From the NCBI GenBank assembly GCA_021442155.1, contig CM038220.1:75627817-75691816 (forward strand): a DNA stretch of 64,000 nt. The letters are read 5' to 3'. This stretch comes from Cymbidium sinense. Lineage: Eukaryota > Streptophyta > Magnoliopsida > Asparagales > Orchidaceae. Under the pieces are notes generated by a model. The model made no database searches. It had not been told where the DNA came from and worked only from the letters and a program-made list of their open reading frames with translations. Below are positions 1 through 50,083 of the stretch, one piece after another (the stretch's first letter is position 1; the number at the start of each line of letters is the position of its first letter). The position numbers were made by a program, and so were the translations under genes.

Positions 1-5
1 TATCC

Positions 6-224
6 CTAGTTGTTAGCAACTTTGGCCAGAATTTCATAATCGCTTGCTTTATCTACAACTTCCAACACAAGTAACTCTAAATTTGAAACTTTCTCTGAAG
101 AATATGCTAAATCTAACTCTATTTAATTCATAACTTCCCTTGCAGTCACTCCAACTATCGTATCTCCATTATATGATGTATTCTTGCCCAATGCTATAAT
201 ATCAGAAGCATCATTCACAGACAT
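6..224 (-). pseudogene. WIT-like coiled-coil protein fragment
   Basis: A 73-codon reading frame from ATG at 222-224 to a stop at 6-8, with one internal TAA. After that stop the residues IELDLAYSSEKVSNLELL and the following stretch resemble the N-terminal region of plant WPP-domain-interacting tail-anchored proteins (WIT1/WIT2), which bind RanGAP at the nuclear envelope. The fragment directly follows the truncated PI4K-gamma piece on the same strand, so the two form a chimera. The family call is from memory of the conserved motif and is only moderately secure. It could instead be another coiled-coil protein. Confidence 0.45.
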
Positions 225-263
225 TTTATTTTGTTCTGTCCTGTAAACTTGTCGATGAAGAAA

Positions 264-1128
264 TCAAAGATGATAAAACTTGAACAGCAAAGCGATGCGG
301 TCGGCGGAACAGTTGGGTTTGCGGCTAGCCGACGGCTTACTGCTGTTACAACTAACACCTTCATTCACATTGAACATTGAGTGGGTGATCTTCACAAGAA
401 TTGTCGGAGGGACATTTGCGAAATGGTTGTAATCAAGAAGGTAAGCGACAACTTCCCTGAATCCAGTCTCACTGACTCGAACTGACTTCTTCAAGCCTGG
501 CTGACCTAGCGCTTTACCAATAAACCCTTCGGATTATTTGGCGCAAATGGATCTTCGTCAGTTGTCTTAACAATGGCGACACTCTCGCCCTGACAGTTTC
601 TGAAGTAGTCAGCACTCCCAAGCTCATTATGAATGGGTATAGGATCCACACCATTTTGATAGCCTTTACAACAGTCTTGACAAGTTGTTTCGCTACCGAG
701 CAACGACTCGGACATCCTAATATCTCAATCGGACCACTACGAACTCTGTGTTGGAGATCCTTTCCTGTTGGAGATAAGCAAGGGGTGGAAGAACTTCTGT
801 GAATAAGGTTCCTAGTCGAGAGTAAAGGGGAATCATTTTGAGCATCACTGAGATCATTCTTCAGCACACGATCGCTAAACGTCAGTGAACTTTCTTCAGT
901 GGGTACGTTAAGGGCCACATGCAATTTCTTTTTCACTGTATGGGCGTTGTCCCCACGATCGAGTTGAATTCCAAGGACACAACCTGTATCTGTCTGGACG
1001 AACACTCTTCTCCTCCAAGAAGGCCTTGCCTCACCACTCTTAATACCGTGGTACTCATTATTATGAGATCGATTATGGACTGCGACTGCCATTTGAGTCT
1101 GAACTGGGTTGTCCAATTTAGGAGACAT
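264..1128 (-). pseudogene. Phosphatidylinositol 4-kinase gamma fragment
   Basis: Type II-like PI4K-gamma proteins are plant kinases with N-terminal ubiquitin-like domains. The reading frame starts at ATG 1126-1128 (MSPKLDNPVQTQMAVAV). It includes a ubiquitin-like domain at about residues 40-105 (FVQTDTGCVLGIQLDR ... LTFSDRVLKNDL) and the linker HRSSSTPCLSPTGKDLQ. The beginning of the kinase domain follows (NGVDPIPIHNELGS, ESVAIVKTTDEDPFAPNN, then KKSVRVSETGFREV and HFANVPPTILVKITHS). The domain is spread over three frames, with shifts near 655 and 523, and ends before the catalytic region. Full-length family members are roughly 550-650 residues, so about 60% is missing. Family recognition is strong; the copy cannot encode an active kinase. 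Confidence 0.9.
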
Positions 1129-1751
1129 GAAACAGAGAAAGAGGGAATGCCGCTGTTGGAATAACTGTTATGCTTGCCAGTTCTATCTACTCAATCATCA
1201 TGAACGAATGAAATGAGAGACCAGACTCTGAATATGTGAGCATTGAAGTGGTTCCTGTTTGATTCGACAGTAGTGACGGAAAGGGAACAAAGCCACAGCA
1301 GTCCACTTCGTTCCGTGAAAGACCATCATTCAATGGAATCGACGTAGATAGAAATTACGAGACGAGAATCCTAGTTCTATAATAACTTTCCATTTTGCCT
1401 TATAGGAATCAAAACGGTTTCTTGTGGCTTTGGGAAAGCGAACGCATGTTGATCGTGCCTCGTGGGAACAAATGAGAGGGAAAGAATCTTGCCATTTTCT
1501 GGAGAAAGGAAGAAGAAACGAACTGAAAAATCAGCGGGATTTGTGGTTTACTTGAGGAGAAGGGGGAGCACGAGCGATTTGTGCAGTTTTCGTTCGAACG
1601 AAAGGGGGGAACGGTTGTGCCAAGGAGGAGCGGCTGTGCACAGTAGGATCAGGGACGGATTGAGTTATTGAGAATTAATAGACATTTTTAATTAATTTTC
1701 TAAATATTAATCAATTTTAAAATGAATTTTATGCCAACATTATTATATGGT

Positions 1752-1753
<2 letters not shown>
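1129..1753 (-). other. LTR leader upstream of the PI4K-gamma piece
   Basis: No gene is seen here. On the minus strand it is pyrimidine-rich and holds CCGTTCCCCCCTTTCG followed by TTCGAACGAA. A very similar CTGTTCCCCTCTTTTTC plus ATTCGAACGAG occurs upstream of the AHL insert (about 11620-11655), and related text occurs near 19580. I read this as the transcribed leader shared by the LTRs, with host 5' untranslated sequence possibly beginning nearer 1130-1440. Confidence 0.45.

Positions 1754-1831
<78 letters not shown>
1754..1831. repeat. (TA)n microsatellite
   Basis: A 78-bp uninterrupted TA tract lies between block A and the leader of the RT-1 3' LTR, at the position where other LTR copies have short TATATATA runs. 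Confidence 0.95.
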
Positions 1832-1835
<4 letters not shown>

Positions 1836-2865
1836 ACAAGCCAACGCTAATTTACATTTCAGATCGGGTTTGGTTTAAGACCAATCAATAATTTCACCAC
1901 ACGCGTCACTTTCGACCGCTTGATTTTCACGCACGTCCAGAGTATGAAAATTTTACTTGATAGGATGCGTTTCAAAGATAACGGCGTGATCATTCATAAG
2001 CGTCGTTTGATTCTCATCGCTCCTCTCGACCGACATGCGCGGCTGACGACAGCGCTTGACGGTTGATCATCGTCACGCAATATTTATATCAGTACTTTCG
2101 GTTCTAACCATGATGATGGCGAAAAGTTACGGAGGTCATTTGTTGATTGATGACGGCACATTTCTCGATTTGCCGTCACTTCAAATCATTGATTTGTACT
2201 CATTCGATTTGAGCAAAAAGTCCCATTTGATAGTTTTGATGTTTTGAACGCTGATCATTCGAACGGCGCCGTTTGATCTTCGTCGCAGCTTCCTAACTTT
2301 GATATGCATGCAAGCATGTTGATGACTCGAGCACTTGATCAGTTGATCATTAAATTGTACAATATTTATATCCTAACCAATTTCGACGTTCTGAATGAGA
2401 TGGCGAAGTCCGCTCACATCGGAGGTTTGATTTCGGACGCCCCGGTATTTCACTCGATTGTTATCACTTCAAATCACTCAATATTTGCACAGACTCGTCC
2501 GAATTGAGCACGGATAGTCTTATTTGATAGATTTCGATGTTTCGAAGCTAACGACATGATCAATTTCATGAACGGAGGTCGTTACGATATCGTCGCAGCT
2601 TCTCGACTCCGATATGCATGTCAACACATTGATAGCTCAAGCGCTTAATCAATTGCTCGTTAGATTTTACAATATTTATATTCTGATCAATTTCGATGTT
2701 CTAAACATGAAGGAGAAGTCCATTCATCAATCGGAGGTCGTTTCAACCATTTTCAGTGACGTCTAGTGCATTTTGACCCCGATTTGCACATTATCACCTT
2801 AGAAGTCCGCCGAATTTGATTTGTAGCCTTGATTTTGACTTATGGCACACATATGGAGGTCAACA
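1832..2865 (-). repeat. LTR block A (U3), degenerate ~310-bp repeats
   Basis: At least three diverged units are marked by the motif CAATATTTATAT near 2078, 2359 and 2674. Each is followed by a variant of TTTCGATGTTCTGAA and of GGCGAAGTCCATTCATC. The same units recur at 14895-16049, 19690-20441, 21114-21500 (inverted), 35010-35440 (inverted) and 49600-50083. Short reading frames inside it have no recognisable product. By position it is the U3 part of the LTR. Confidence 0.75.
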
Positions 2866-6549: not shown

Positions 6550-8500
6550 TGTGGGCTTCAAAAATTCGTCACCGACCTCTCGATAATTTTTTTTGAATAA
6601 TTGAATTGAAGAGAGTGATTTAAAAGTGTCGGTGTAATTTCAGAAGGCAGATGGGATAGTAGATAAGACACTACCCAAAGATTTCATCCTCGTTTGGTGA
6701 GGACTATAGATCTGGTTCCAGGTTTTCTATAGGCGCAAGCCTCTATAGTTAATTACCCCTCCCAATAAGTGAGAGAGAACTTTCGATTAAGGCTAGTCGT
6801 TAGAATTTAAGATTATGAAATTTATCATTTCAACTTAAACATGATAGTTGGGGGAATGATGACGTGCCCGATCTAGATCCCATGGTTCCGTCATCCCAGG
6901 AAGCGATCCTTGGTCTATGAGGAGGTAGTCAACACAACTTGGGAAGGATCCTTATCGACAATACATGGTTATGTCTAAGAAATCCTGTAGACATGGTGAT
7001 GTTTGTCAGAGAGGCAATTTAAGTTTACGAAAGGGTTGTTTGTCTATCATACCACATGATTCATAACTCAAAGGGAAGAGCCATTGGGGAGCATCGGCCG
7101 TAATCGTGTAATGGAGCCGGATTGGCCAAACCACTCGATCGAGGACTCGTGCGTTCATCTGGAGCTCTTTAAAGCCAGTAGTCGAGGACACGCCACATCC
7201 TTACTAGCGTGAGATTGATTAAAAGTGAACATAGCAGAACACTTGATTTGACATTGGTTTCTTTGTGAGCTAGAGTTTTCTTAGTTTGTCATCCCCGACA
7301 AACAGTTGCGGAAGGTGTATGGATTGAGTTTTGCTTTAAGCTTTTAATAATAGAATTTCATTTAGATGATTTTTAGATTGACACTCAATTTGAGTTAGTT
7401 TGATTTGAAAATATAATCACATTTTGATGGAAATATTTCCTCTGGTTGAAATTACCATTCAATGCAGCCATCATCGGGGTAGTCAATTGATTAATTGAAT
7501 CAAATATATTTGAGAATTTTAGATCTTGTCAACTCTGTTTAGCTCTTAACAGAGGATTAGATCTACTGTTATATGACAGAATCAACTTCTCAGATATTCC
7601 ACTAACTTAGACTCATTATAATAGATTTTTAGGCTTTGTTAACCACCCTAAGACTAAAGCGGGAAGCAACGTGCAACATCCTGACTTGAATCTAAACATT
7701 CGTTAGCCATGCAAGTATTTATAACTTAGATAATTTCATCTAATTAATGAAATCATTGATATTAAAAATTATAATTAGAATGAAATTTCTTTTATTTTTG
7801 AATTGAAGAAAAGTTTCTGCATTTGTGCAGCATTTAATTTAGTGTCACCTTCTATCTACTTGTACAAAGCATTGCAGATCCGGTGGCGAAGAGGGCATTT
7901 TGATTTAGATTCTAAAAGATAGTTTAATTTGTTGTTTTAAAAGAAGATTTATCCCTCAGAATAGCTTTCATTTTTTCCCACTTTTTTGTTTTACTTTTGA
8001 GTTTGTTGTATGTCATTTTCTCTCCCCTTTTTGTTGTTAAAGTTTTTAATTTGAATTTTAGCTTTAGGTTTCCTTGCTTAACATTCTTAAGTCGATTCAT
8101 TTTATGCTCTCATTTTTCTTTTAAGTCAAAAGATTTGACGTAATTTTGGCAGCCTCCCGACATCATCCCCGTGTAGGGGGCTGCATCGGGGGTATTTTGG
8201 CCTACCCGTCACGCTCTGATGAGCATGAAGGTTGGTGTTTTGAAGCACCTCGACCGACCTTCAATCTCGTTACGCCCTGATGAGCATAACGAGGCCTTCA
8301 ATCACCTAATAAAGCAAATATATATGCAAATAGTCTAAATTTCGGCAGCCTTTCAGTATAAGGGTGCCACATCTGATGATTTTGGCTTCTCGATACGCCC
8401 TGATGAGCATAGTGAGCGATGTATTGCGACACCACGACCATCTTAATGCACCCACTATACCCTGATGAGCATTAGCGTGATCTTGAAATCTGCAAAAAGA
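6550..8500 (-). repeat. LTR block B, copy 1 (U5 with hairpins)
   Basis: Block B recurs at 11735-14690, 16310-18690, 23150-24610, 37080-37649, 41740-44582, 46003-48650 and 55368-57795. On the plus strand it starts TGTGGGCTTCAAAAATTC. It contains the conserved phrases TAGTAGATAAGACACTACCC, TAATTACCCCTCCCAAT and GGGGGAATGATGAC, and ends in a hairpin array (8140-8490). Short reading frames within it (for example 7006-7191) differ between copies and are not judged coding. Confidence 0.8.
8140..8490. repeat. Structured hairpin array in block B copy 1
   Basis: Successive inverted repeats are visible. One is a pseudoknot-like module at 8149-8192. Another is GGTG...CACC at 8233-8249. A third is the stem CTCGTTACGC / GCATAACGAG (8266-8275 and 8284-8293, one mismatch) around loop CCTGATGA. 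Equivalent stems in other copies carry paired base changes. Each module tends to end with AGGCCTTCAA. Confidence 0.7.
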
Positions 8501-8514
8501 GACACCAGCATGTA

Positions 8515-9077
8515 TAATCTACAATAATTGCAGTCTTATTGAAAATTTTCAACCTCATGCCTTGGACATCTAGAATAGTTGTGCTAGAATCAATATGCTT
8601 TATTGCAGTGATGGAACAAGCCGAAAACTTAAGTTGGAAGCTCCACTCAACCTCTTTAACATGATATTTGATATAGCTTTATGTGGTTATGACATGCATA
8701 AGTTTGTTTGGTTCAATTTTTTCTAATATTTCAATGTAAACTGACCTCCCCTCCCTGTCTACACCATGGTATCCATGAGGATAGTACTTCAGAACTTCAG
8801 GTAACTCTTCATAATCAAAATCCTCAATAATAGTGTCGGCGCCATGCTCCTTCCTCCATTGAAGCATATCAGCCCACATCTGCTTTACTTTCTCGATATC
8901 AAATTTATGAGCATTCAAAAATCTCAACATCATATGATAATTATCATGCTTTGAAGGCAGCAAATCATCCAATATCAAAGATTGGTGAAAAGCATCAACA
9001 GCTTGAAGCTCCTCTATATCCTTTATGTCCTCAATAGAAACAGAAATAACCGAGTGAGAAAGATTGGCAATGCACAA
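8515..9077 (-). pseudogene. SEC14-like phosphatidylinositol transfer protein (SFH) fragment
   Basis: SFH proteins bind and exchange phosphatidylinositol and phosphatidylcholine. The minus strand encodes [19 protein letters not shown], the CRAL-TRIO N-terminal part ([34 protein letters not shown]) and the start of the SEC14 lipid-binding domain ([19 protein letters not shown]). An in-frame TAA at 8679-8681 is followed in the same frame by [12 protein letters not shown] and [14 protein letters not shown], which are also conserved. Similarity ends near 8520 where block B begins. The N-terminus ahead of SVSIED is not family-like, perhaps an exon boundary. Roughly a quarter of a full SFH protein is present. 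Confidence 0.9.
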
Positions 9078-9570
9078 CGAATCACAGCGGCGATACTGAT
9101 TAAGGGAGACCGAGCGAGAGGGAGTAAATCATAGATTCAAAGGTGTACGGCTTGGTATCAGATCAATGAAAGCAGGCGACGGGAACATTAACCAGATGAG
9201 ATTTCGATGGAGAGAATTCTCGGCTTCAATGGTGGTACAGTACCGGCTGGAGTAGGAGGAACAACCGGCGGGCACTGTAGCGCAGAGACCAGCGGCTCAG
9301 TTTGGAGCATTCGGCTTCAAGAGGAGCAGCGGGAAGGTTAAGACGGAAGAAAAAAGTGCTCAAACAACGGCAGCCCAGCCTCACCAATATTAGCACCACC
9401 GTGTAGAGGAGATGACTGCTTGGCTTGCATGCATCCAGCAGGAGACGCTTCCACGATTCAGAGCTCGAGGATTTTGATCACATCAACAGGAATCTCAGCT
9501 CAGGCTCAGTTAGAAACCCTCGAGCTCGAAGCAGAGAAAGTAAAACTTCAATCTTTAATATGTGGGTTTG
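9078..9570 (-). other. Unassigned stretch between SFH and AHL pieces
   Basis: No recognisable coding sequence. It is less AT-rich than the surroundings. It may be the downstream end of the AHL source gene plus the leader of the SFH source gene, but no motif supports this. Confidence 0.3.
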
Positions 9571-11374
9571 CTGAACAGAAGATGCGGCTGTAAGAAACCC
9601 AGCCACCCCACCACCGATGACTCGGCCATCAGGACCAGCCAATGAAACACTCAGGCTGCGTATTTGACTATGCTGATCACCATTCTTAGATAGAAGAATA
9701 GAACCAGAAAGTGATAGTATTTCAAATCGACCCTCATAAGTACTGTACCAACAGAAGTTGCAGCCTGACGAAGTGTCACGTTAGATATAGCGCCATTTGC
9801 AGAAAGTATGCAAATAGCACGTAGTCCATTCTGAAAAAATGACGGGATTATTTTTAAAATAGTCATATTATTAATTTTAGAGTGTAATTTAAGTCATCAA
9901 ATTTTTTTTTTACTTAGAAAATAGGCCAGTCATCTACTGGATATTCGTAAGCGTCGTGTTCGTCGTTTCTGACTGGAGGATTTTATTTTGTAGAGAGAGA
10001 GAGAGAGGCGCATTTTTTTTATTTTTTGCTTTCGGTAGAGAGAGGGTTTTATTATTATTTTAATTAATATAATTATTTAAAATATTTAAAATATATAATT
10101 TAATTTAAAATATTTTTATAAAATATTTAATAATTAAATATTTATATATTTAGTTATTAATTAATTTATTTATATATATATAATTAAATATATAATTTAA
10201 AAATATTTTTAATTATATATATAAATTTAGAAATTTATTTAATAATTTTTATTAATTAATATAATTATTTAAATATATAATTTTTATTAATTTTTATTAA
10301 TATATAATTTAAAAATATTTAAAATATATAAATAAATAATTTTTAAATAAATAAATAAATAAATAAATTATATAAATAAAGTAATATTATATATATATAT
10401 TTATATATTTAAATTATATAAATATTTTTAAGTTATATAAATAATTTTAAAATATTTAAAATATATAAATAAATAATTAGTTATATATATATATATATAT
10501 ATATTTATTTATTTAATTAGTTATTTTTTTATTTAAAAATATTTAATTATTTAAAATATATAATTAGTTAAATAAATAAATAAAAAATTTTAAATTATAT
10601 AAATATTTAGTTATTTATATATTTATAAAATATTTAGTTATTTATATATTTATTTATTTATTATATAAAGCCAATAAATTATATAAATAAATATATAAAT
10701 AACTAAATATTTTATATATAATTACTTTATTTATATAATTTATAAAATATTTATATAATTTCTTTCTTTCTTTATTTATTTATTAAAATTATTTATTTAT
10801 ATATTTTAAATATTTTTAAATTATATATTAACAAAATTAATAAAAAATTATATATTTAAATATTTATATTAATTAAAAAATTATTAAATAAATTTCTAAA
10901 TTTATATATATAATTAAAAATATTTTTAAAGTATATATTTAATTATATATAAATAAATTAATTAATAATTAAATATATAAATATTTAGTTATTAAATATT
11001 TTATAAAAATATTTTTAAATTATATATTTTAAATATTTTAAATAATTATATTAATTAAAAAAAATAAAACCCTCTCTCTCTACGGAAAAAAAAAAATAAA
11101 AAAACACTCTCTCTCTCTCTCTCTCTCTCCCTCTCTCTCCTACGAAAGCAAAAAAAAAAAAAAAAAAAAAAAATCCTTGATTATGTCCTTGTACAGGGCA
11201 TTCATAAAAAAAAAATTTGATGTCTAAATTGTTAATTAAAGTTAATAATATGACTATTTTAAAAATAATCCCAAAAAATGACATGATTTTCGAGGATGCT
11301 TCCTCTCCAGCCTTAATAGTAATTACATGAGGAGTAAATCCAGACCCTGCTGATCCAAGTGCCAACATCTGCTG
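9571..11374 (-). pseudogene. AHL (AT-hook nuclear-localized) PPC-domain fragment, transposon-split
   Basis: AHL proteins are plant nuclear proteins with AT-hooks and a PPC/DUF296 domain that mediates trimer formation. From 11374 leftward the minus strand reads QMLALGSAGSGFTPHVIT, IKAGEEASSKIMSFF, then after the inserted element QNGLRAICILSANGAISNVT and LRQAATSVGTV. A one-base frameshift near 9740 follows, then YEGRFEILSLSGSILLSKN and SVSLAGPDGRVIGGGVAGF, ending TAASSVQ (9571). That is nearly the whole PPC domain. No AT-hook is present upstream; the frame instead runs into an unrelated sequence. Removing the insert with one target-site copy leaves the PPC frame continuous across the junction, so the insertion postdates this coding sequence. 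Confidence 0.92.
9844..11272. mobile_element. Mutator-like non-autonomous foldback element
   Basis: The ends are perfect inverted repeats for about 31 bp (GGGATTATTTTTAAAATAGT... at 9844, its complement ending at 11272). They are flanked by the 10-bp direct repeat AAAAAATGAC (9834-9843 and 11273-11282). Long inverted ends with 9-10 bp target duplications are the signature of Mutator-like elements. Inverted similarity continues almost to a centre near 10670, through TTTGCTTTCG plus GA/CT tracts and several hundred bp of AT-only sequence, so the whole 1,429 bp could fold on itself. The left arm is longer through indels. No transposase is present. Confidence 0.88.
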
Positions 11375-11735
11375 CAAAAGTCTTGTAGGCATCGAATAGG
11401 TCGATGCATTGCATCGATTTCCAGCAATGGCTTTCCTAGTGAGTTTTTTGAAGCCATTAGAGAGGCAGAGGCTGGGTTTTTTGGAGAAAGGAGCCGGTTT
11501 GAGAATCCAGTCCCCCCTTTGCCACTGCTTGCAGTTGAAGAAAAGGGAAAGAAGGCCCCCAACAGAATGGAGAGGGAACAAGTAAACAATCAGCTTTGGG
11601 AATGGTTTTGAGGAGCGAGCTCGTTCGAATGAAAAAGAGGGGAACAGTTGAGGGATTTGAATTATCGACTGAGGGAGACTCACGCGTGTGCGGGTGAAGG
11701 AGCCGAAGAAATTGAATCTCACACAGTATTTTAAA
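11375..11735 (-). other. LTR leader and unknown chimeric 5' coding stretch ahead of AHL
   Basis: The minus strand from about 11720 gives a pyrimidine-rich leader with CAACTGTTCCCCTC and ATTCGAACGAG. A reading frame then includes GFKKLTRKAIAGNRCNAS and TRLL and runs into the AHL sequence QMLALG without a stop. The segment does not resemble an AHL N-terminus. It has the Ser/Lys-rich look of an organelle transit peptide, but I do not recognise the gene. It appears to be a second source fused to AHL. Confidence 0.35.
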
Positions 11736-12539
11736 GTGTCAGTATAATTTTCAAAAGGCAGATAGAATAGTAGATAAGACACTACCCAGAGATTTCATCA
11801 TTATTTGGTGAGAACTTTAGATATGGTTCCAGGTTTCCTATAGGCGCAAGTCCATATGGTTAATTACCCCTCCCAATAAGTGAGAGAGAACTTTCGATTA
11901 AGGCAAGTCATTTAGATTGTTGAATGCATAGCGTGTAGTAACAGCATATAGAGTTATAGAATTTAAGATATGAAATTCATCATTTTAGCTTAAATCAGAT
12001 GGTTGGGGGAATGATGATGGCCGTCTAGATCCCATGATTATCGTCAGGCGTCGTGGTCCCTGTTTACTTCGAGGAGGAGGCGGTCGGACTTGACAAAATG
12101 ATCCTTATCAACAACACATAGGTTACGTCGTCAAGAAATCTTTGTACCAGGGTGGTGTTTGTCTAAGACAAGCTTAAGTCTACATTGGAGAGGGTTGTTT
12201 GCCTCCAAGTATACATGATTCACAACTCAAAGGGTAAAGCCATTGGGAGAATACTGATGCGTGATAAATATAATGGAGCGGTGGCCAAACCACGTCGAGG
12301 ACTCGGTCGACGACTTCATCGTGGAACCTGCCAAGCGGTCGGAGGACACGGGTATACTAGCGTGAGATTGATTGAGAGTGAACATAGCATAACACTTGAT
12401 TTGACATTGGCTCCTTTGTGAGCTAGAGTTTTCTTAGTTTGTCACCCCCAACAAACAGTTGTAGAAGTGGATAGATTGGGTTTGATTTAAGTTTTAATGA
12501 TAGAATTTTATTTAAACAGTTTCAGATTGCTACTTAAAA

Positions 12540-13440
12540 ATTGATTAATTAGAATATGTTTAAGAGCTTTAGATCCTGTCAACTCCGTTTAGCCGCTAAC
12601 AGAGGATTAGATCTACTATCACTTGACAAAATCAGTTTCTCAGATATTTCACTAATTTGAAACTCTAATTATAGGATTTTTTTAGGTTTTATTATCGGGA
12701 CTAGTCAAGACTAAGCAGGAAGCAACAGCAACACCTTGACACTTGAATATAAGCATTCAACATAGTGTGGGCACATGCGTGTATTTATGATGATTTTCAT
12801 TTAGAGTTATGAGATAAATTTGATTTTAATTTGATTTGAAAAATTTATTAATTTGAATATATTTAAGTGCTTTAGATCCTCCTATTTAGCGAGAGGATTA
12901 GATCTGTCACTTGACATAATCGTTCTTAAATATTTCCAATTGAAACTCTTATTATATAGGTTTTAGGTTTTGTTAACTTTGAACCAAACTAAGACTGAAG
13001 CAACTGCGGCGTCCTCGACACTTGAATTTAAGCATTCAACACTTAGGGGACCCATGCGGGTGTATTTAAGACTTTATGTAGTGTTTATTTCTTAACTATG
13101 AGATTGATTTCAAATTTTTATTTAATTCTAACTTAGCCTGCACAGCATTTTTAGACATTAAAATTCTAATATGTTTAAGAGCTTTATATCCTATCAACTC
13201 TATTTAGCTGCTAATAGAGGATTAGATCCACTGTCATTTGACAAAATCAATTTCATAGATATTTCACTAATTTGAAACTCTTATTATAGGTTTTTAGGTT
13301 TTGTTAACCCACTCTAAACTAAACCGGAAGCATCGCACTCACAAATAATTTCAACATTGATAGTGTCGAGGCCCATGCGGGTGTATAATAATTTTAGGTA
13401 ATTTGGTGTTTGAATTATGAGATTGATTTTAGATTTTTCA
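12540..13440. repeat. Triplicated ~305-bp unit inside block B copy 2
   Basis: The phrase TTTAGATCCT followed by GAGGATTAGATC recurs at about 12569, 12871 and 13184. Each time it is followed by a variant of TTTCACTAATTTGAAACTC and TTTTAGGTTTTGTTAAC. Block B copies 1 and 3 have this unit once (near 7525 and 17255), so the triplication is local to this copy. Confidence 0.75.
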
Positions 13441-13929
13441 TTTAATTATAACTTTATCCTATGCAGCCTTTTCAGACATTAAAATTTATACTTGAAATCT
13501 CTATGTCCGAGCACATGCAGGAATTTATAACTTAGATAATTTTACCTAATTAGTGATTTCGTTGATTATGAAAATCATAATTAAAATGAAATTCCTTAAG
13601 TTTTGTATTGAAGGAAAGCTCCATGATTTTTGTAGAATTGGATTTAGTATTGTCTTCTGTCTGCTTGTACAAAGAGTTGTAGATCCGGTGGCGAAGAAGA
13701 CAATCGATTTAGATTGTAAAAGATCGTTTAATTTATTATTTTAAAAGAAGATTTATCCCTCAGAGTAGCTTTCATTTTCTCTCTCTTTTGTTTTACTTTT
13801 GTGCTTGTTATATGCTATTTTTCCTCCCCCTTTTGTTGTTCAGAGTTTTTAATTTGAATTTTAGCTTTAGGTTTCCTTATTTAACATTCTTAAGTCGATC
13901 CATTTTATGTTCCCATTTTTTTAAGTCAA

Positions 13930-14690
13930 AAGATTTGACGTAATTTTGGCAACCTCCTAGCATCATCTCTCGTAGAGGCGTCGAGTGTTTTGGCTTTACA
14001 TCGCATACAATGGCGTGATAGTTGGTGTTTTGGACACCTCGGTGACCTTCAATCCGTTGCTACGATGAGCATAACGAGGCCCAATTACTCTAAAAGCAAA
14101 TATATATGCAAATATTCCAAATTTTACAAAGATTTTGGCGGTGTTTGGCGTCATCCGCGTAGGGGCTACTAATTATTTTGGCTATCGTCGCATACGATGG
14201 CGTGATGGTTGGTGTTTTGAAGCACCTCGACATACCTTCAATCCCGTCACGCCCTGATGAGCATAATGATGCCTTCAATCACCTGTATAAAAGCAAACAT
14301 ATATGCATATATTCTGAATTTCAATAGTATTTCAGTATAAGGGGTGCCACATTTGACGATTTTGGTTTACTTGGTACGCCCTGATGAGCGTAGCGAGCGG
14401 TGTCTTGCGACACCACAACCGGATTTCATCTTGTCACACCCTGATGAGCATGATTAGGCCTTCAGACTTGCATAAATACAAGCATATGCATATATAATTT
14501 TTTCTTTCAGGCATTTCATCAAACACCTTCCTTGCCTCTTCTACAATACCATTTTCAGCATACATCTTTATCAAACGGTAGACTTACTCGGTACGCCCTG
14601 ATGAACATTGCAAGCGGTGTCTTGTGACACCACAGCTGATTTTCATCTCGTCACGCCCTGATGAGCACGATGAGGCCTTCAAACTTGAAG
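13930..14690. repeat. Hairpin array of block B copy 2, ~190-bp modules
   Basis: Two tandem modules (about 13935-14125 and 14125-14325) each hold TTTTGGC, GGCGTGAT, GGTGTTTTG...CACCTCG and GATGAGCATAA. Further modules carry TACGCCCTGATGAGCGTA (perfect 5-bp inner stem, 14376-14393) and GGTGTCTTGCGACACC (14399-14414). A PPR coding piece interrupts the array at 14497-14580. Confidence 0.7.
14497..14580 (-). pseudogene. Pentatricopeptide repeat (PPR) protein fragment
   Basis: Twenty-eight codons on the minus strand include LIKMYAENGIVEEARKVFDE, a canonical PLS-class PPR motif, followed by MPER. PPR proteins bind organelle RNA. The piece sits inside the hairpin array, replacing about 30 bases found at that place in neighbouring modules. 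Only one motif is present. The family is certain; the gene cannot be told. Confidence 0.85.
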
Positions 14691-14830
14691 CAGAGTAAGG
14701 TACCTCCAAGACTTATGAAGCCAATAGGCTGCATTAACTTTTGAACATTATAGATTGTCTTGAAGTGCACCGACATCCATGAATTCAGCACAAAGTATCC
14801 CCAGTTGTTAGTAACTTTTGAACATTATAT
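14690..14830 (-). pseudogene. Possible PPR E-domain or unknown coding fragment
   Basis: An open minus-strand frame reads NNWGYFVLNSWMSVHF and NVQKLMQPIGFISLGG. The spacing of GYFVL, NVQKLM and the final G-rich part resembles the E motif that follows PPR arrays, which would fit the PPR piece next door. The resemblance is weak. Its first 22 bases also match the start of the window (complement of 1-22) with two differences. Confidence 0.3.
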
Positions 14831-14854
14831 ATAGTCTTTATCTTCAACGTTGGT

Positions 14855-14855
<1 letters not shown>

Positions 14856-14894: not shown

Positions 14895-14898
<4 letters not shown>

Positions 14899-35639: not shown

Positions 35640-36539
35640 CTCCTTCAACCACAAGAATGCAAAATCCTCCTTCCCTATCGAACTCCTATTCTTCGCCTGC
35701 ACCTCAAACTCTACTGCTCCAATCCTCTCCTCGGTAGCTTCCACCCCCCCACCGCCACCACATCCTTCTTTGCTTCTGCAGAGGATGATAAAACTCACAA
35801 ACATTCTGACATCAATGATCTCCTGGAGATGGCACGAGCCTTGGATATCTCATCTCGTGTGGCATACGGGGCTTGTGCCTGCTTAGTGCTGGCAGTGCTC
35901 AGCTTACCCCTTATGATGCAGTCAGTGACGTGCGTGGCGAGCACGAAGATTAGGGTTCTGTCCTATGTGACTCTGCTCTCCGGGTTCTTCATGGCATAGA
36001 ACATTGGAGATAATGATGTGGCCAACGCGATGGACACGTCAGTGGGCTCAGGGGTGCTCTTGCTTTTGCAAGCAGTATTAATTGTGGTGCTGCTGGAGTT
36101 CTTTGTGGTTCTCTTGATGAGGACTCATGTAATGAGTACTATGCAGAAGAAGATCTTTATGGTTCGATGTTTCAGGGAAAGGATTCGTTGTTGTTTGCTG
36201 GGCTTCATTCATCATTGGCTGCTTCGGGTGGCTTCCTTCAATGGCTGGCCTATTTCTACCACACATTGTATAGTAGGTGCCATGGTTGATTTTGGTCTAG
36301 TCTATGGCAGCATTGGAGCTATTTTCTGGAGTTCCCTAGCACGAGTAGCTTCATCGCGGGTCATATCCAATATCATGGGAGCAGTAGCATCTTTCATTGT
36401 TTATAAATACATCCGTAGGTTCGTGTACAATGCCGATAATCCAGGTCAGACAGCTGTAGCTTTCGTTCTAGTTGCAATTTTCCTCAGCATTACTAGAATT
36501 TCCTTTGCGTCTTTCCCATTGGCTCTCCTTCAATTGTAG
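35640..36539 (+). pseudogene. PHT2;1: Chloroplast phosphate transporter PHT2;1 fragment, copy 2
   Basis: Same extent and same flanks as copy 1. It reads EDDKTHKHSDINDLLEMARA, SRVAYGACACLVLAVLSLP, then LLSGFFMA followed by a stop (TAG, 35997-35999, where the family has Trp). NIGDNDVANAMDTSVGSG follows, where the GAND signature Ala is changed to Asp. A frameshifted stretch lies at about 36160-36230, then NGWPISTTHCIVGAMVDFGL, VASSRVISNIMGAVASF and FVYNADNPGQTAVAF. It ends with TAG at 36537-36539. It encodes only the first PHO4 half. Confidence 0.93.
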
Positions 36540-37079
36540 AATAAGAAAACCACAAACCTTCTCCATTGTCTAGCCCACTCCGAAAAGCCAGCCGTTCCGG
36601 CCCGCAGCTCGCCTCCACTACGCTATCCTGACCCACAAGCTCCCGTCCTGCATGCTCGTCCCACCGCGCATTCTTCCCGCAGCCCTCAACCCATCTAATT
36701 TTTAGTTCATTGCAAACTGGGGAAGAACATCATGAAGATGAAAATTCTTTTTTTTTAGGTTTAGTGTCGCTCCTGCTTTTACTTCCACTTTTCACTACCC
36801 GTGGAATAATATCGTCGAGGATCTTCTTTTGTTTCGTGTCGCTTGCTTTTCTCTACTTTTCTTCACCGTAAGAACTCATCAGGAGAATTCTACTTTTGAT
36901 TTTCATTACGATTCCTTTGCTTTAACCTTCACAAACCAAGCGGGTAAATATCGTCAAGAGATGAATTCTCGATTTTCTCTCTTGGTTGTCTTACATTCAC
37001 TCACATACGTTCCTTGTAGAGCATTGCGATCAAAAAAAAAAAAATTCGAGCATGAGATCGTGAATGGATATATATATAT
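36540..37079 (+). other. LTR region downstream of PHT2;1 copy 2
   Basis: Collinear with 22601-23149; no gene recognised. The open frame at 36829-37164 has no family resemblance and is not conserved in the other LTR. Confidence 0.5.
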
Positions 37080-37649
37080 TCTGGAGTCTCGATCGGGTGG
37101 TTTGGCGGTCAGCTCCATTATATTACGATCATGTGCGCGTAATCTGATGCTCGCTGAGTTGTGATCATATGGTATATTTGATAGGAAAAATACGTCTAAG
37201 ATAGACTTAAGATTATTCTTTTAAACACCACCCCCAGTCATAAGGATTTCTTGGATCGTAACATGTGTTCTTAGATCCTTTTATCGAGTTAGATTACTCC
37301 TCTAACTAAGTAGGTAGGGCCGCTTGGATGATGGAACCATGTGATCTAGATCGGGCACATCATCATTCCCCCAACCATCCGGTTTAAGCTTAAATGATGA
37401 ATTTATATCTTAAATTCTAAAACTCTAAATCTTTATTCTTGCTCTGTTACGCGTCAACGATCAATAAGCTCGAAGTTCTCTTACTTATTGAGTAATTAAC
37501 TAGGGCTTTATAGAAACCCGATCTAAAGTTCATCAAATGAGGATGAAATATCTGGTAGTATCTTATCTACTATCTCATATGCCCAAAATTACGACCTCAA
37601 ACCACACTCTCTTCAATTCATAAAATTGTTGAAGGTAAGTTTTCTCACA
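37080..37649 (+). repeat. LTR block B, copy 5 (U5 end only)
   Basis: Complement of the first 570 bp of block B copy 1, with CACCACCCCCAGTCATAAGG (37227-37246) and TATCTACTATCTCA (37564-37577), ending at the LTR terminus. Confidence 0.75.
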
Positions 37650-38060
37650 TAATGTTGAATGCTTTTTTTTGTTAAGTCCAAGATTTGATGGAATTTCAAC
37701 ACTTTAAGATTCAAGCGTCATCCGGCGTAGAATCGAAACTATTTTGGCTTTCTTCATGAGCGGTTGGTGTTTGAGCGTCTTGACCAATTTATTATCTGAT
37801 GAGCATAACGAGGCATTCAATCACTTGCATAAAAGAAAATATATAAGCAAATATTCTTCTCCTCTTTTTTTTTTCTTAAGTCCAAATTTTAGTCAAAATT
37901 TCGGCAGCATTTTAGCACAGGGGGAGCAACATCCAACGGTTTAGGCTTACTCGATATGCCCTGATGAGTATAGCGAGCGGTGTCTTGTGACACCACAGTC
38001 GAATTTTATCTCATTATGACTTGATGAACATGAAGAGGCTTTTAAACCTGAAACTGTAAA
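37650..38060 (-). repeat. LTR-4 hairpin array, right of RT-5
   Basis: Plus strand: TTTTTGTTAAGTCCAAGATTTGATGG, then GCGTCATCCGGCGTAGAATCG, GATATGCCCTGATGAGTATAGCG and GGTGTCTTGTGACACC (37979-37994, perfect six-base stem). It continues the block B copy that stops at 21113. Confidence 0.7.
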
Positions 38061-38795
38061 CAGTCTTTTGAATTTGCAAACTTTAGAGCTTGGAAACTGT
38101 TACAAACTTGAAATGTTGCCAATAAATATGGAAAACTTGGTTATGCTGTGGCATCTCGATTTGCGTCTTGACCAAGATTGTAGAGATAGACAAATTGATC
38201 TCATTTCCATGCCACCTGGTATTGGAAATTTAAAATCTTTAAGACACTTGTCAAGGTTTGCCGTCGGATTAGAGCTCCAGTATGGTCTAGGAGAATTGAA
38301 GGACTTAAAACTCCATGACAAACTTTGCATCACCAAGCTTGAACAACTAGTCAGTGTCCATGATGCAGATGTAGCCAATTTAAAGGGTAAACGAGACATT
38401 GATTCAGTAATGTTGAGATGGAGTGATGCTGCATTCAGAAAATCAGTAAATGTGCCTGAAGAAGATATGATTGATCGACTCCAGCCTCACGAGAATCTCA
38501 AGCATTTAAGTGTAGAAAATTACAATGGGAAGGAATTTTGAATTGGATCAAAGATCCATCTTTCAAGAAGTTGAAAACAATGACACTCGTCAATTGCAAA
38601 ATGTGCTCATCTCTCTCATCTGGGTGGAATCTGTCATCACTGAAGATGCTCCAGCTAAAGAGTTTGCATGGAGTGAAAAGCTTTGGCATTGTGCATTCAG
38701 GGTTCAAAGATTTAGAAACACTTGATGTGTCAGATATGCCTGAACTGGATAGCTGGTTTTTAGGAGATAGGATGAATCGTCTTACTGCTCTGTGC
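38061..38795 (+). pseudogene. NLR disease-resistance gene, leucine-rich repeat fragment
   Basis: The frame reads NLQTLELGNCYKLEMLPINM, LVMLWHLDL, GIGNLKSLRHLSRFAVG and LGELKDLKLHDKLCI. LKHLSVENYNGKEF follows, then a frameshift near 38539, then NWIKDPSFKKLKTMTLVNC, GWNLSSLKMLQLKSL and LETLDVSDMPEL. This is the LRR half of a coiled-coil NLR immune receptor. No NB-ARC domain is present. Unlike the other host pieces it is antisense to the LTR that contains it. It breaks off near 38795 into the KANADI duplication. Confidence 0.9.
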
Positions 38796-38799
38796 CTCC

Positions 38800-39100
38800 C
38801 ACTTGAGAATTACTGCATCCTGCACTGCAGTCCACGTCTTGAGCTGTCGTGGTTGTATTTGATTCTCTGCTATCTATCTGCCTCCAATGCCACGGTCTTC
38901 TCCTCCCGAGCCCTTCGAGGAAGTTGCAGCTTTCTCAGTAGTCTTCACAGTTCTATACATCTGCAAATGACTTTTGACATGGGCTAGAGTAAGATCTCTC
39001 ACATCCATGAGTTCATGAACTGATTTTGGAGTAGCCCTCTCATGTCCACCAAGTAACTCTATAGCATGCACAAAACGGGCATGTAGAGTCATCGTCCACT
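38800..39100 (-). pseudogene. KANADI-type GARP domain fragment, copy 1
   Basis: The frame from ATG 39090-39092 reads TLHARFVHAIELLGGHERAT, PKSVHELMDVRDLTLAHVKS, HLQMYRTVKTTEKAA and GSGGEDRGIG. This is the GARP Myb-like DNA-binding domain, with the KANADI signature of the LLGGHERATPKSV region and LAHVKSHLQMYRTVK. KANADI factors set abaxial leaf identity. The first helix residues upstream of TLHARF are cut. Duplicate of 39150-39495. Confidence 0.9.
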
Positions 39101-39149
39101 AATTTGTGCATTGTTGATTGCCCCAATCTGAGATGGCTATACGTCCCAC

Positions 39150-39495
39150 TTGAAGAATTACTTCATTCTGCACTGCAGTTCATGTCTTGAACTATCATAG
39201 TTGTATTTGATTCTCTGCTATCTATCCGCCCTCCAATGCCACGGTCTTCTCCTCCTGAGCCCTCTGATGAAGCTACAGCTTTCTCAGTAGTCTTCACGGT
39301 TCTATACATCTGCAAATGACTTTTGACATGGGCTAGAGTAAGATCTCTCACATCCATGAGTCCAAGAACTGATTTTGGAGTAGCTCTCTCATGTCCACCA
39401 AGTAACTCTATAGCATGCACAAAACAGGCATGTAGAGTCATCATCCACCTCGACCTCGACGCCCTCATACTCCTCTTCACTAGATTCTTCCACAT
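39150..39495 (-). pseudogene. KANADI-type GARP domain fragment, copy 2
   Basis: The longest frame, starting at 39495, reads MWKNLVKRSMRASRSRWMMT, then LHACFVHAIELLGGHERATP, KSVLGLMDVRDLTLAHVKSH and LQMYRTVKTTEKAVASS, ending NTTMIVQDMNCSAE. The domain is complete and open, including the R[AS][PS]R.RW start. Compared with typical KANADI (TLHAHFVHAV) it has TLHACFVHAI. It is one exon only; the rest of the gene is missing. It follows the LTR-4 leader (40170-39800) in sense orientation. Confidence 0.92.
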
Positions 39496-39544
39496 AAGCT
39501 TATTTCATCAAGCCTTACGATGGCTCAAAGCACCTAACCTATAG

Positions 39545-46002: not shown

Positions 46003-48059
46003 TGTGAGCTCTTAAAATTCACCACCGATATCTCAATGAAGAGAGTTTGATTAAATATTGGTTAAATTTTTAGAAGAAAGATGGAATAGTATATAAGACA
46101 CTACCTAGAGATTTTGCCCTCATTATGTAAGGACTTTAGATCTAGTTCTAGGTTTCCTATAAGCGCAAGCACTTATAACTAATTACCTCTCTCAATGTTG
46201 AGAGAGAACTTTTGATTAAGGCTAGTTTAGATTGCTAATTATTTAGTGTATAGTAGTAGCATGTGGAGTTTAAAATTTGAGATTTAGAATTTATGAAATT
46301 CATTGTTATTAGTTTAAAATAGATGGTTGGGGGAATGATGATGCACTCGATTAAGATCCCACGGTTCCATCATCCTGGGATGTCATGGTCCCTAGTCTAC
46401 TTAGTTAAAGGAGGTAGTCGACCCAATTTAACTAAAGAATTCTTATCATTAGCCATAGGTTGTGTTGTCCAAGGAGACATTGTAGACCTGGGGTAGTGTT
46501 TGTCTAAGGAGATAAGTTTAAGTCCACTTTAGTTGGCAGAGAGATTTTTACCTACCAGGTGCACCCTATGATTCACAACTTAAAGGACAGAGCCATTGGG
46601 GAACATGCGGGCTACAATCATGACCATGATATAATGGTGTCATTTGGCATCACATGGTCGGACTATGATAAATCGCATCATATGTGGGCTCTTGGTCAAA
46701 CCGCATGGTCAAAGGACACATGCATCTTATTGGCATGAATTTGATTGAGAGTGATCATAGTATAATACTTGACTTGATATTGGCTCTTTTGTAAGCTAAA
46801 TTTTTCTTAATTTGTTACTTTCAACAAATATTTGTGGAAGGTGGGTTGGATTTTAGCTTTAAGTTTTTTAAATATTGATGATTTTCATTTGATCATTTAT
46901 ATCTTAATAACATGTTAGCTTTTATATTTAAATTAATATTTTATTTAAGTCAATTTGATCTGAAATTATGATTATATTTTGATAAAAGTATCCTATCTAA
47001 TTGAAATCTCCATTCATCATATTCATCATCGGGGTGGATATATTATTTTGCTATTACAGTTCGCCCACTCTATTTAATAATGAGGATCGATCTCATGATA
47101 GAATTAGCTTCTCATATATTTTACAAGTTGAAATTCTTATAATAGTATTATTAGATTTTAGGTTTTGTTAACCCAGCCCCGATTCTAAGACCCAATTGAG
47201 AATTAACCCGCTCGACATCCTTAGACACTTATAGTGTCGAGGCTCATCTGGTGTATTTTTAGATTTCTTGCATAATTTTAAAGTATTGAATTTAAATTTT
47301 AATCATGCCTTATGATATGTGCAAAACTCATCACATTAAGTTCTATGCATGTATTTTAATTCCATAAATTTAAGCATGTGATTGCCTTATAATGTGTACA
47401 CTACTTATTTCATTTAAAGATTTATACTTATTTAATGTACTCTATTATTATGAATTCAAATGCAATGCCACTTCAAGATGGTTTATTAATGCCTTTTGTT
47501 TTGCTTATATGATGGGTTACAAATTTGGTGGTGTATATTATAAGTTTCATTCTTATCGCTTCAACTCCTTTGAATATTTTATTGCAGAATTTCTTATTCA
47601 TTCAAGTATTTTGTTTACATTGGATGAACATCTAACTTATTGTAAATTATTATTAGTGAGATAATTATAAGCCCAATCTTGTCTCAGCAGCTTAATATAT
47701 TATACTTAATTAAATTATTGAATTTATTACTTGTTTAAGCTTCAAATATTATTCTTTCATTATTTCATTTTTTTATTAATTATCACTCTCTATTTTGATG
47801 AAATTTTCTCGTCATATTTGAGTCTTCCCATCATGCTTAAGAAAGCATGCATAGTTACTCTACCAATCTTAAACTTACGCTAAAGAAAGTGTGCATAGCC
47901 TTCAATACATAAGTATTTTGAAATTTGACCTCAAGTCATCCTCAGAGCTACTTTGGAATACTAGAGCCTTGCTTAAGAAAACATGCATAATTAGTGTATT
48001 GCTACACTACATCTTAGAGAATCTTCTAAACCCATCATACTTAAGAAAGCATGCATGGG

Positions 48060-48560
48060 CCTTCAATGCCTGTGTTTGGAATGAAATTCGGCAGCATCTC
48101 GGTATCATCCCCACATGAGGGGCGGCATCAGGAGTACTAAAGCCTTCCCACCAAGCTTATGAGAAGCGTGCATGGTAGGTGTCTTTCTTGCGCTTAAGAG
48201 GTCTTCCAAACCCACAATGCTTAAGAAGAGTGCATAGGCCTTCAATACCTACATAGAGACATCCTAGTTTCCTCGCCATCTTTGGAGTAGCATGTACTTA
48301 TATCTAGCAAATATTTTCAATTGTATTGAAGAAGTATGTACATGAATTTAATATACTAAGCATAATATGCAGTATTTCAAATGAAATTTAGCAACTCCCA
48401 GCGTCATCCGCAGATATAAGAGGTTGTATCGGGAGTACTAAGGCCTTCCCACCATGTTTATGGGAAGCATGCATGGTAGGTGTCTCACCACCTGTGAAGG
48501 GATTTTGCACCTACCATGCTTATGAGAATCATCTTAGGCCTTCAAACCGTGTAAGAGATG
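48060..48560. repeat. Hairpin array of block B copy 7
   Basis: Modules begin TTCGGCAGCATCTCGG (48088) and TTTAGCAACTCCCAGCG (about 48398). The second pairs ACTCCC with GGGAGT. Stems of CATGCTTATGAGAA...GCATG type and AGGTGTCTCACCACCT (perfect AGGTG/CACCT, 48478-48493) replace the CCTGATGA hairpins, yet the trailing AGGCCTTCAA is kept. Confidence 0.6.
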
Positions 48561-48649
48561 GGTTTCCTCATCATCTTTGAAGCTATGCAGAGTACTCTAG
48601 CAAAATTCCCCCTTTGAATTAATCATGAGTGAGTACATAAAATTATAAG

Positions 48650-49500
48650 CATTCATCACATTTTGGTTTTACATATACATTAATCCATGGTGACTATAAT
48701 ACAAATGTAACTACTACTACACCTTCACTTATCAACACTTTACCCCTCTTTTTTTTTTAACATCAAATGAGAGAACACATCCCCTCGGTGGATCTAGCCT
48801 CCACTTTGTCCTCCTCATTCCAAACATCAAAAATCTATCACTCTTTCCAATCTTACTTTTAGACTTTCCAACAAACAACCACATACTCCCAACAAATCCA
48901 TTGTCCCACCCTTTTCATGTCAAATATCAAAACACCACTACTTTCTCTTTGGTGGAATAAAAATTCGTGAAACATCACACTTTAATTATATATAGCATGA
49001 AGAGAGAAACATAAGTCTACAACAATTTAGATCTTATCATCTCATACCTCGTTGGCTCAACTGCTAGAAAAGGGGTTGAAGTAGAGGCTGGCTTCTTGAA
49101 AGTAGTAAGAGAGGGACAACCAAATAAAGCTTGCAGCAGTTTACACAATTGGGAGGTGCAAGCAATGATCAGCTGCTTCATTCGATTGAGAGAAGTAGAT
49201 GGGATGGAGGGCTTCATGCGTTGTTTGACTCGCTGAGGAAGAGAGAGAGGGTCTGCTTTCGGCCAAAAGAGAGGAAGAAAAGGGTTTGCTAAAGGTGGAC
49301 AAGTATTTTACATTCAATGGAGAGAAAAGAAGAGGGGCTAGAGCTTTATTCGAATGTGAATAAGGGAAGAAGTCTCATCGGATAATAGGAGAATGAATGG
49401 GAGTTGCACGCATCTTGATCAATCGAATGAATGAAGGAAAAAAGGGGTGTATGATGCTCAGTTTGAGTGGTGTGAGTGGCGAATGGGCTTAGGGTTAGAT
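48650..49500 (-). other. Transcribed region of RT-7 3' LTR with unrecognised small frame
   Basis: Downstream of the TATA box the minus strand is CT-rich. It has a 66-codon frame (49217-49017) starting MKPSIPSTSLNRMKQLIIAC and containing KPASTSTPF. No family is recognised. This is the slot that holds host-gene pieces in other LTRs, so it may be a captured first exon. Confidence 0.3.
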
Positions 49501-49509
49501 ATTATTTGG

Positions 49510-49517
49510 TATATATA
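49510..49517 (-). promoter_or_regulatory. TATA box of RT-7 3' LTR
   Basis: CCTATATATACC on the minus strand, followed about 40-60 bp later by pyrimidine-rich leader sequence. It lies directly after block A, where an LTR core promoter is expected. It occupies the position of the expanded TA tracts in other LTRs. Confidence 0.5.
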
Positions 49518-49589
49518 GGCCCCTTTTCCTTATTTAAGTGATTAAATTAACCCTAATTAAACTTTTCACAGAACATCATTTTATGATTA

Positions 49590-50083
49590 ATATATATATG
49601 TTAATTTTAGGTTATTTTGATGTTTTAGATGCAATGACGTTTCATGATCGAGGTTCAAATCAACATCGGATTGGATCAATTTCAGTTCAAATTACGCATT
49701 GCCGCTTCTGACCACTCGACATTTGCTCAGACTCGTTTGAATTGAGCAGATAGTCTCATTTGATAGTTTTTGATATTTTAATGCTAACGACATGATCAAT
49801 ATCATGAATAGAGGTTTTTGGTCATCAAAGCCTTTTTTGACTCTACATCGCGTGAACACGTCGAATTTCCTTCTTAATCGATTATTGTCAAATTGTGCAA
49901 TATGTATTATTTTGATCAATTTCAATATTTTGAAACTGATGGTGAAGTTTGTTCATTGATTGGAGATCATTTTGGTGATGTCGAGTGTATTTTGACTTCA
50001 ATTTGTGCATCATTGTATCCGAAGCCGATCGACTTAGTCTTGTGAACTCAACTCGACTGATCTGACATACATGGAGGTCAAAT
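49590..50083 (-). repeat. LTR block A, copy 6
   Basis: Short copy with GCAATATGTATTATTTTG near 49897 in place of CAATATTTATAT, and GTTATTTTGATGTTTTAGATGC near 49609. It follows the same order as the other A blocks. Confidence 0.6.

What the first reader, a model, noticed from the sequence alone, without database searches (positions are those of the whole stretch)
1..49590. One LTR family carries a different host-gene piece in nearly every copy, almost always in sense
Between the promoter-proximal TA region and the hairpin-rich U5 block, the copies hold PI4K-gamma + WIT-like (RT-1 3' LTR), AHL + SFH (RT-1 5' LTR), PPR (LTR-2), a GC-rich insert (LTR-3), KANADI x2 + NLR (LTR-4), PHT2;1 (both RT-5 LTRs) and a possible GEX2-like piece (LTR-6). 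Relative to the LTR, all except the NLR piece are in sense orientation. Capture of host sequence in the internal region of retrotransposons is known. A replaceable slot inside the LTR, downstream of the promoter, is not something I know as described. If real, each insertion would print two copies of a promoter-driven chimeric exon.
Basis: partly seen in the sequence, partly recalled or inferred. Interest (0 to 1): 0.92.

Follow-up and report, generated by a model that had tools for sequence, protein, structure and literature searches.

The report
Spliced host RNA inside retrotransposon LTRs
In an orchid-like plant genome, a large family of old retrotransposons carries pieces of ordinary plant genes inside its long terminal repeats; for three of the genes checked the pieces lack introns, and one has its exons in the order of a circular RNA, so they were most likely copied from RNA while the element was being reverse transcribed.

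Summary
Partly confirmed, with corrections. The window holds nested, decayed Ty3/gypsy elements with very long LTRs: a U3/TATA/leader block, a variable stretch, then U5. Parts of PI4K-gamma, AHL, SFH and PHT2;1 lie there, all sense; GARP/KANADI (sense) and NLR (antisense) lie beside a U5 whose U3 I could not find. In the window's own genome, 15 of 20 fetched copies had a recognisable U3; all 15 have 0.7-1.9 kb between U3 and U5, none a direct join. Only one (L023: TPR + APC1, sense) gave Pfam-recognisable host sequence, so 'nearly every copy' is not supported. Native genes show the route: PHT2;1 has 12.3 kb and 75 bp introns that 9 of 9 compared LTR copies lack; the SFH piece lacks two introns; the AHL piece lacks two and carries an exact back-splice junction (late-exon donor joined to upstream-exon acceptor), also in a second copy. 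So these three came from spliced, once back-spliced, RNA, not from DNA-level capture. Capture during minus-strand strong-stop synthesis is inferred. Sense: 7 of 8 pieces (one-sided p = 0.035, not independent). RT-1's two LTRs carry different inserts, which is unexplained.

The parts
1..2865 (-). RT-1 3' LTR, cut by the window edge: U3 2865->~1790, (AT)39 at 1754-1831, leader, then the variable stretch
   Evidence: preceded by the PPT-like GGGGGGCATT
267..1167 (-). PI4K-gamma piece (ubiquitin-like region and start of the kinase), sense to the LTR
   Evidence: both domains below cut-off; matches of 560 bp or more at 14 other places
6550..16049 (-). RT-1 5' LTR read as one unit: U3 16049->14857, first U5 copy 14750->11710 (lacks last ~50 bp), AHL, SFH, second U5 copy
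   Evidence: the one-unit reading is my inference
9446..11400 (-). AHL piece: two native introns absent; a late exon joined by an exact back-splice junction (at ~9581) to an upstream exon; interrupted by 9844-11272
9844..11272 (.). palindromic fold-back element inserted in AHL codons, flanked by GTCATTTTTT on both sides; absent from the C3 copy L044
8530..9128 (-). SFH (Sec14-nodulin) piece, contiguous across two native introns, sense
6550..8577 (-). second U5 block of RT-1 5' LTR, ending CCCACA, followed by PBS-like TGGCGACTCCACTGAGGAC
16310..20441 (-). LTR-3, solo LTR; GC-rich variable stretch 18560-19620 of unknown origin; flanks GACTA / GACTC (4 of 5)
21114..24670 (+). RT-5 5' LTR: U3, leader, PHT2;1 piece, U5 (its exact end not found)
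21720..22600 (+). PHT2;1 piece (about aa 36-329 of 566), intron-free, sense
24671..35009 (+). RT-5 internal region with reverse transcriptase and integrase remnants
35010..37651 (+). RT-5 3' LTR: U3, leader, PHT2;1 piece (35646-36530), shortened U5; end read by eye; flanks TAATA / TAATG (4 of 5)
37662..38108 (-). start of the LTR-4 U5, interrupted by RT-5; continuation at 21113->20442
38020..38984 (+). NLR leucine-rich-repeat piece, antisense to the LTR-4 U5
   Evidence: 38020-38541
38790..39504 (-). GARP/KANADI-like piece in two tandem copies (92% alike), sense to the LTR-4 U5
   Evidence: below cut-off
46003..50080 (-). LTR-6 (3' LTR): U3 50080->~49500, variable stretch 49500->48680 (no Pfam match in two ORFs tested), U5 48680->46003

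Best explanation
A large family of Ty3/gypsy elements with very long LTRs captured pieces of host RNA while its own RNA was being reverse transcribed. Shown for PHT2;1, SFH and AHL: the pieces lack introns that the native genes have, are sense to the element and lie in the LTR next to U5. Shown for PHT2;1: both outer edges lie inside exons. Shown for AHL: the piece carries a back-splice junction (circular RNA, or trans-splicing). Inferred: the reverse transcriptase, started at the PBS, copied the ~2 kb U5, switched to a co-packaged host RNA, sometimes to a second one, returned to element RNA and finished the leader. A switch at this minus-strand strong-stop stage puts the piece between leader and U5, and normal strand transfers then copy it into both LTRs, so it is heritable. 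Inferred too: the stretch tolerates foreign sequence because it is a long untranslated leader, while captures inside gag-pol would end autonomous spread. Some pieces were then amplified as subfamilies.
For: PHT2;1: native introns GTTGCAG|GTTAG..CATCACAG|GTGGC (12.3 kb from the coordinates) and CAGG|GTATG..GTGTAG|TTCG (75 bp) are absent in 9 of 9 LTR copies compared (L031-L039; further, shorter or more diverged matches were not compared). At the first intron all 9 share the same 14-16 base shortfall, which fits an upstream alternative GT donor joined to the true acceptor, with point changes in some copies. U3 before and U5 after in 8 of 9. SFH: native exons at query 79-206, 202-307 and 305-569 on C11 with splice sites; contiguous in the window. 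AHL: the intron ACTTATGAG|GTTTG..GTTCAG|GGTCG is absent, as is the one ending TACGCAG|GATG; CTGTTCAG is joined to CAAACCC, which in the native gene follows TTTTTTGCAG 3.8 kb upstream, in the window and in L044; a published survey says that the GRFEIL motif always begins an exon in intron-containing Type-B genes (PMC4209074, passages). Outer edges of PHT2;1 mid-exon. Sense: 7 of 8 pieces. Mosaics: AHL+SFH; TPR+APC1 in L023. U5 directly after SFH in L045. PHT2;1 matches on one strand 12-16 kb apart at four places.
Against: RT-1's two LTRs hold different inserts. In RT-5 the PHT2;1 copies are 86% alike while the 3' one is 94% like L036 elsewhere, and the U3s are 68% alike; a single clean capture-and-insertion predicts sister LTRs, so later recombination, gene conversion or asymmetric strand transfer must be assumed. 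The NLR piece is antisense. 14 of 15 sampled stretches show no Pfam host domain. No intron-split native source was seen for PI4K or the TPR piece. PHT2;1 starts inside the gene, so my first idea, that copying runs to the mRNA cap, is not supported. The strong-stop timing was not tested directly.
Confidence: 0.75

Rival explanations
1. DNA-level capture: Helitrons, Pack-MULEs or segmental insertions carrying gene fragments landed in the LTRs.
For: Multi-gene mosaics and GC-rich content resemble such carriers; a fold-back element with a 9-10 bp flank duplication lies in AHL.
Against: PHT2;1, SFH and AHL lack native introns exactly at splice sites; the fold-back is absent from L044, so it came later. 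Carrier ends were not searched for.
Confidence: 0.06
2. Processed pseudogenes made by LINE machinery inserted into the LTRs.
For: Intron-free pieces; an A-rich tract (GTAGAAAACAAAAAAAAAA) follows the PHT2;1 piece in most copies.
Against: The PHT2;1 piece stops at about aa 329 of 566 and the SFH piece stops inside the gene, whereas LINE copies are expected to keep the 3' end; two-gene mosaics and repeated placement between leader and U5 are not expected. Flank duplications around the pieces were not tested.
Confidence: 0.08
3. RNA capture happened, but by read-through or trans-splicing of element RNA onto host exons before reverse transcription, not by template switching.
For: The AHL back-splice lies exactly on splice sites and PHT2;1 uses an alternative donor.
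Against: The outer edges of PHT2;1 lie inside exons.
Confidence: 0.1
4. The stretch is mostly the family's own fast-evolving leader; host pieces are uncommon accidents that happen to be frequent in this window.
For: 14 of 15 sampled stretches show no Pfam domain; L009, L014 and L027 share content; the U5-side parts share tandem repeats.
Against: Stretches differ in content and GC (0.36-0.56) from one another and from U3/U5; six host genes (PHT2;1, PI4K, AHL, SFH, TPR, APC1) were found at this place.
Confidence: 0.4

Closest known systems
LTR-mediated retroposition by template switching (Tan et al., as described in PMC5408686; passages)
   Same: Cellular mRNA copied into element cDNA by switching templates inside the particle; partial gene pieces; several switches possible.
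   Different: Here the piece lies inside the LTR, between leader and U5, is present in both LTRs of RT-5, and one piece carries a back-splice junction.
Bs1 of maize (PMC13317346; passages)
   Same: Segments of three host genes in one plant LTR element.
   Different: In Bs1 the pieces are in the internal region (recalled); here they are inside LTRs of one family, with different pieces in different copies.
BARE-2 / Wis-2 LTR exchange and Triticeae template-switch complexes (PMC13317346, PMC1950507; passages)
   Same: Abnormal template switching changes LTR content or makes chimeric complexes.
   Different: The donor there is another retrotransposon, not host gene RNA.
LTR-captured genes of rice, sorghum and maize (PMC3726574, PMC2774510; passages)
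   Same: Hundreds of gene fragments inside LTR retrotransposons.
   Different: The passages I saw count genes within whole elements and describe no variable stretch inside the LTR; the maize survey found no element with fragments of more than one standard nuclear gene.
circRNA-derived pseudogenes (recalled from mammals; no call)
   Same: Genomic copy with a back-splice junction.
   Different: Here in a plant, inside an LTR family.

Membership tests
Ty3/gypsy LTR retrotransposon | reverse transcriptase, RNase H and integrase domains of LTR type | tested here: met
   RVT_1, Integrase_H2C2, RT_RNaseH matches in fragments; 5 of 10 ORFs matched
Ty3/gypsy LTR retrotransposon | TG..CA LTR ends | tested here: met
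   window ends. In 15 sampled LTRs a start was placed in 14 (9 begin TG, the others TA or CA) and an end in 13 (10 end in CA)
Ty3/gypsy LTR retrotransposon | PBS and flank duplication | tested here: inconclusive
   PBS-like sequence after 6550; flank matches 4 of 5 bp for RT-5 and LTR-3, which chance could give; most sampled LTRs show no clear duplication
Tat lineage of Ty3/gypsy | lineage by domain phylogeny | not tested
   suspected from recalled motifs only
LTR-mediated retroposition | captured piece derives from spliced RNA | tested here: met
   for PHT2;1, SFH, AHL
LTR-mediated retroposition | piece in element sense | tested here: inconclusive
   7 of 8 pieces, one-sided p = 0.035, pieces within one LTR not independent
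LTR-mediated retroposition | microsimilarity at switch points | not tested
   edges of PHT2;1 were seen but no donor element sequence of that time is known
Pack-MULE / Helitron capture | DNA copy of the gene, introns kept | tested here: not met
   introns absent for PHT2;1, SFH, AHL; not tested for the other pieces
Pack-MULE / Helitron capture | carrier ends around the gene pieces | not tested
   not searched for
LINE processed pseudogene | 3' end of the mRNA followed by poly(A) | tested here: not met
   PHT2;1 and SFH pieces lack the gene 3' end; an A-rich tract after PHT2;1 is unexplained
circRNA-derived copy | donor of a later exon joined exactly to the acceptor of an earlier exon | tested here: met
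   AHL CTGTTCAG joined to CAAACCC in window and L044; trans-splicing not excluded

The most novel reading that the evidence does not exclude
Because U5 plus leader is several kb long here, minus-strand strong-stop synthesis became a standing entry point for host transcripts, circular RNAs included: LTR lineages carry sampled pieces of the plant's ancient transcriptome under their promoter, passed to both LTRs and spread by the element.
Probability: 0.4. Interest if true: 0.85.

Novelty: new variant of a known kind. Interest (0 to 1): 0.72.

Why it matters
Gene capture by LTR elements is usually described for the internal region, where it costs the element its own genes (recalled). A capture point inside the LTR would let an autonomous family carry, double and promote host exons without losing gag-pol, and would leave a datable record of spliced and circular RNAs of the past. 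The AHL back-splice junction makes the question 'do circular RNAs re-enter plant genomes through LTR elements?' directly testable.

Tried and rejected
Rejected: copying to the mRNA cap (the PHT2;1 piece starts inside the gene). Rejected: the small gap in PHT2;1 as a random deletion; it fits an alternative splice donor. Rejected: LTR-2 as a separate LTR with a PPR piece. Led nowhere: Pfam on 9 of 10 further window ORFs, the tenth giving PI3_PI4_kinase; Pfam on 98 antisense ORFs of the sample (14 weak families, best 7.4e-5, one member each, not followed up and not counted as host pieces); papers on KANADI gene structure (0 papers). The GARP piece and the L020 stretch could not be searched in the genome. 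The sample is the top of one similarity search with one U5 (40 of 14,672 candidates scored); the 20 best places other than the window were fetched, and 5 (L012, L015, L016, L021, L025) were dropped before the slot count because no U3 was seen in the fetched 10 kb. The 19 places next in that list could not be fetched.
Full report
What the window is. It is plant DNA with nested, decayed Ty3/gypsy elements (RVT_1, RNase H and integrase zinc-binding matches). The best protein matches of the PHT2;1 piece are orchids: Dendrobium catenatum 69%, Phalaenopsis equestris 62% (7,998 candidates scored, 390 proteins found, 120 listed). The window lies at G000:C7:75627817-75691816 of a 3.53 Gb assembly.

LTR anatomy. 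U3-type blocks start TGTTGACC or a near match at 2865(-), 16049(-), 20441(-), 21114(+), 35010(+), ~50080(-) and run through a TATATATAT stretch and about 100 bp of leader, where homology stops. U5-type blocks end in CCCACA or a near match. A PBS-like sequence follows the end at 6550. RT-5 (21114-37651) has flanks TAATA/TAATG (4 of 5; the right end was read by eye) and sits inside the U5 of another LTR: the flanking pieces 38108->37662 and 21112->20882 map, best match each, to neighbouring places of uninterrupted U5 blocks (the neighbourhood is read across a 62% alignment). LTR-3 has flanks GACTA/GACTC (4 of 5).

Host pieces. Pfam finds PHO4, PPC and LRR above cut-off, and CRAL_TRIO_N, Myb/GARP, ubiquitin and PI3_PI4_kinase below it. 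All are sense to their LTR except NLR. GARP and NLR belong to LTR-4, whose U3 I could not find.

Are variable stretches general? A search with the window's U5 end gave 43 matches, 40 of 14,672 candidates scored. I fetched the 20 best other places. Fifteen have a U3 upstream on the same strand; five were dropped. All 15 have 0.7-1.9 kb between the detected U3 and U5; none joins them directly. GC there is 0.36-0.56 against 0.29-0.39 in U3 and 0.28-0.36 in U5. In most, the U5-side part is shared tandem repeats; a part of 100 bp or more without a partner among the other stretches exists in 14 of 15 (E < 1e-5, identity 60% or more). L009, L014 and L027 share content. Thirteen sampled LTRs with both ends placed are 3.7-6.2 kb long. 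Pfam on 115 sense ORFs of 45 aa or more found families in two ORFs only, both in L023: TPR (2.7e-17) and, just downstream, APC1 (3e-6, above cut-off). Single rechecks of 29 other sense ORFs gave none. The 98 antisense ORFs gave 14 weak families. So the stretch is general in this sample, but recognisable host genes are a minority.

Route of capture. PHT2;1: the native gene on C8 has a 12.3 kb intron and a 75 bp intron inside the captured part. All nine LTR-borne copies compared lack both. At the first, all nine show the same shortfall of 14-16 bases, as expected if an upstream GT in exon 1 was the donor; the shared junction says one capture, then amplification. Eight of nine have U3 before and U5 after; L038 lacks the U3. 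SFH: the native C11 gene has three exons over the captured stretch (splice sites); the window and eight other places are contiguous there, of which I checked one, L045, for U5 (present). AHL: the native C2 gene has the intron before GRFEIL that a published survey says is constant in this gene type (PMC4209074, passages); the window lacks it and lacks the intron before that exon. The window also joins the donor end CTGTTCAG to CAAACCC, which in the native gene lies 3.8 kb upstream directly after TTTTTTGCAG. The C3 copy L044 has the same junction and a U5-type block about 0.9 kb further on, but no U3 in the 3.1 kb fetched. That is a back-splice junction: circular RNA or trans-splicing.

Mechanism. 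RNA templates, mostly sense orientation, mid-exon edges and mosaics point to template switching in reverse transcription, a mechanism already proposed for LTR-mediated retroposition (PMC5408686, passages). Placement between leader and U5 is what a switch during minus-strand strong-stop synthesis would give, and it would be copied into both LTRs. This step is inferred.

What does not fit. RT-1's LTRs carry different inserts. RT-5's PHT2;1 copies are 86% alike, its U3s 68%, and the 3' copy is 94% like L036. Two other places show a short-variant and a long-variant PHT2;1 LTR 12-13.5 kb apart. Recombination, conversion or asymmetric strand transfer (proposed for HIV-1 in PMC9278108, passages) could do this; I could not choose. 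The NLR piece is antisense.

Novelty. My searches on captured host sequence in LTR elements (listings, plus passages of six papers) showed captures in elements, LTR exchange between elements and template switching; in what I saw, no host-RNA stretch inside the LTR was described. The library lacks most subscription papers. I file it as a new variant of LTR-mediated retroposition.

Noticed in passing
window 9844-11272: 1.43 kb palindromic, AT-rich fold-back element with ends GGGATTATTTTTAAAATAGTC and flank duplication GTCATTTTTT; by eye a similar AT-rich insert lies in the PHT2;1 copy L035.
   Followed up: partly
window 21114-37651 and 1-16049: Both window elements have unlike LTRs at their two ends (asymmetric LTRs).
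   Followed up: partly
G000:C19:46.68-47.05 Mb: Nine PI4K-gamma pieces of 560 bp or more, 90-93% like the window's, within about 365 kb, on both strands.
   Followed up: no
L030:51-677: A U5-type match lies in the 12.3 kb intron of native PHT2;1, near exon 1: the family also sits in a host intron.
   Followed up: no
L032, L034, L035, L037-L039, right after the PHT2;1 piece: A-rich tract such as GTAGAAAACAAAAAAAAAA directly after the host piece.
   Followed up: no
window 38790-39504: GARP piece in two tandem copies 92% alike, younger than the divergence between LTRs.
   Followed up: no
window 57796-57895: Gap of 100 N next to a U5 block whose U3 side is therefore unknown.
   Followed up: no
window 61572-63857 (-): Remnant of another gypsy pol; the stretch between it and 57896 showed no clear similarity to the studied LTRs.
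   Followed up: no
L045 sense 641-919: The C17 copy of the SFH piece includes about 280 bp (with a likely start codon) that the window lacks.
   Followed up: partly
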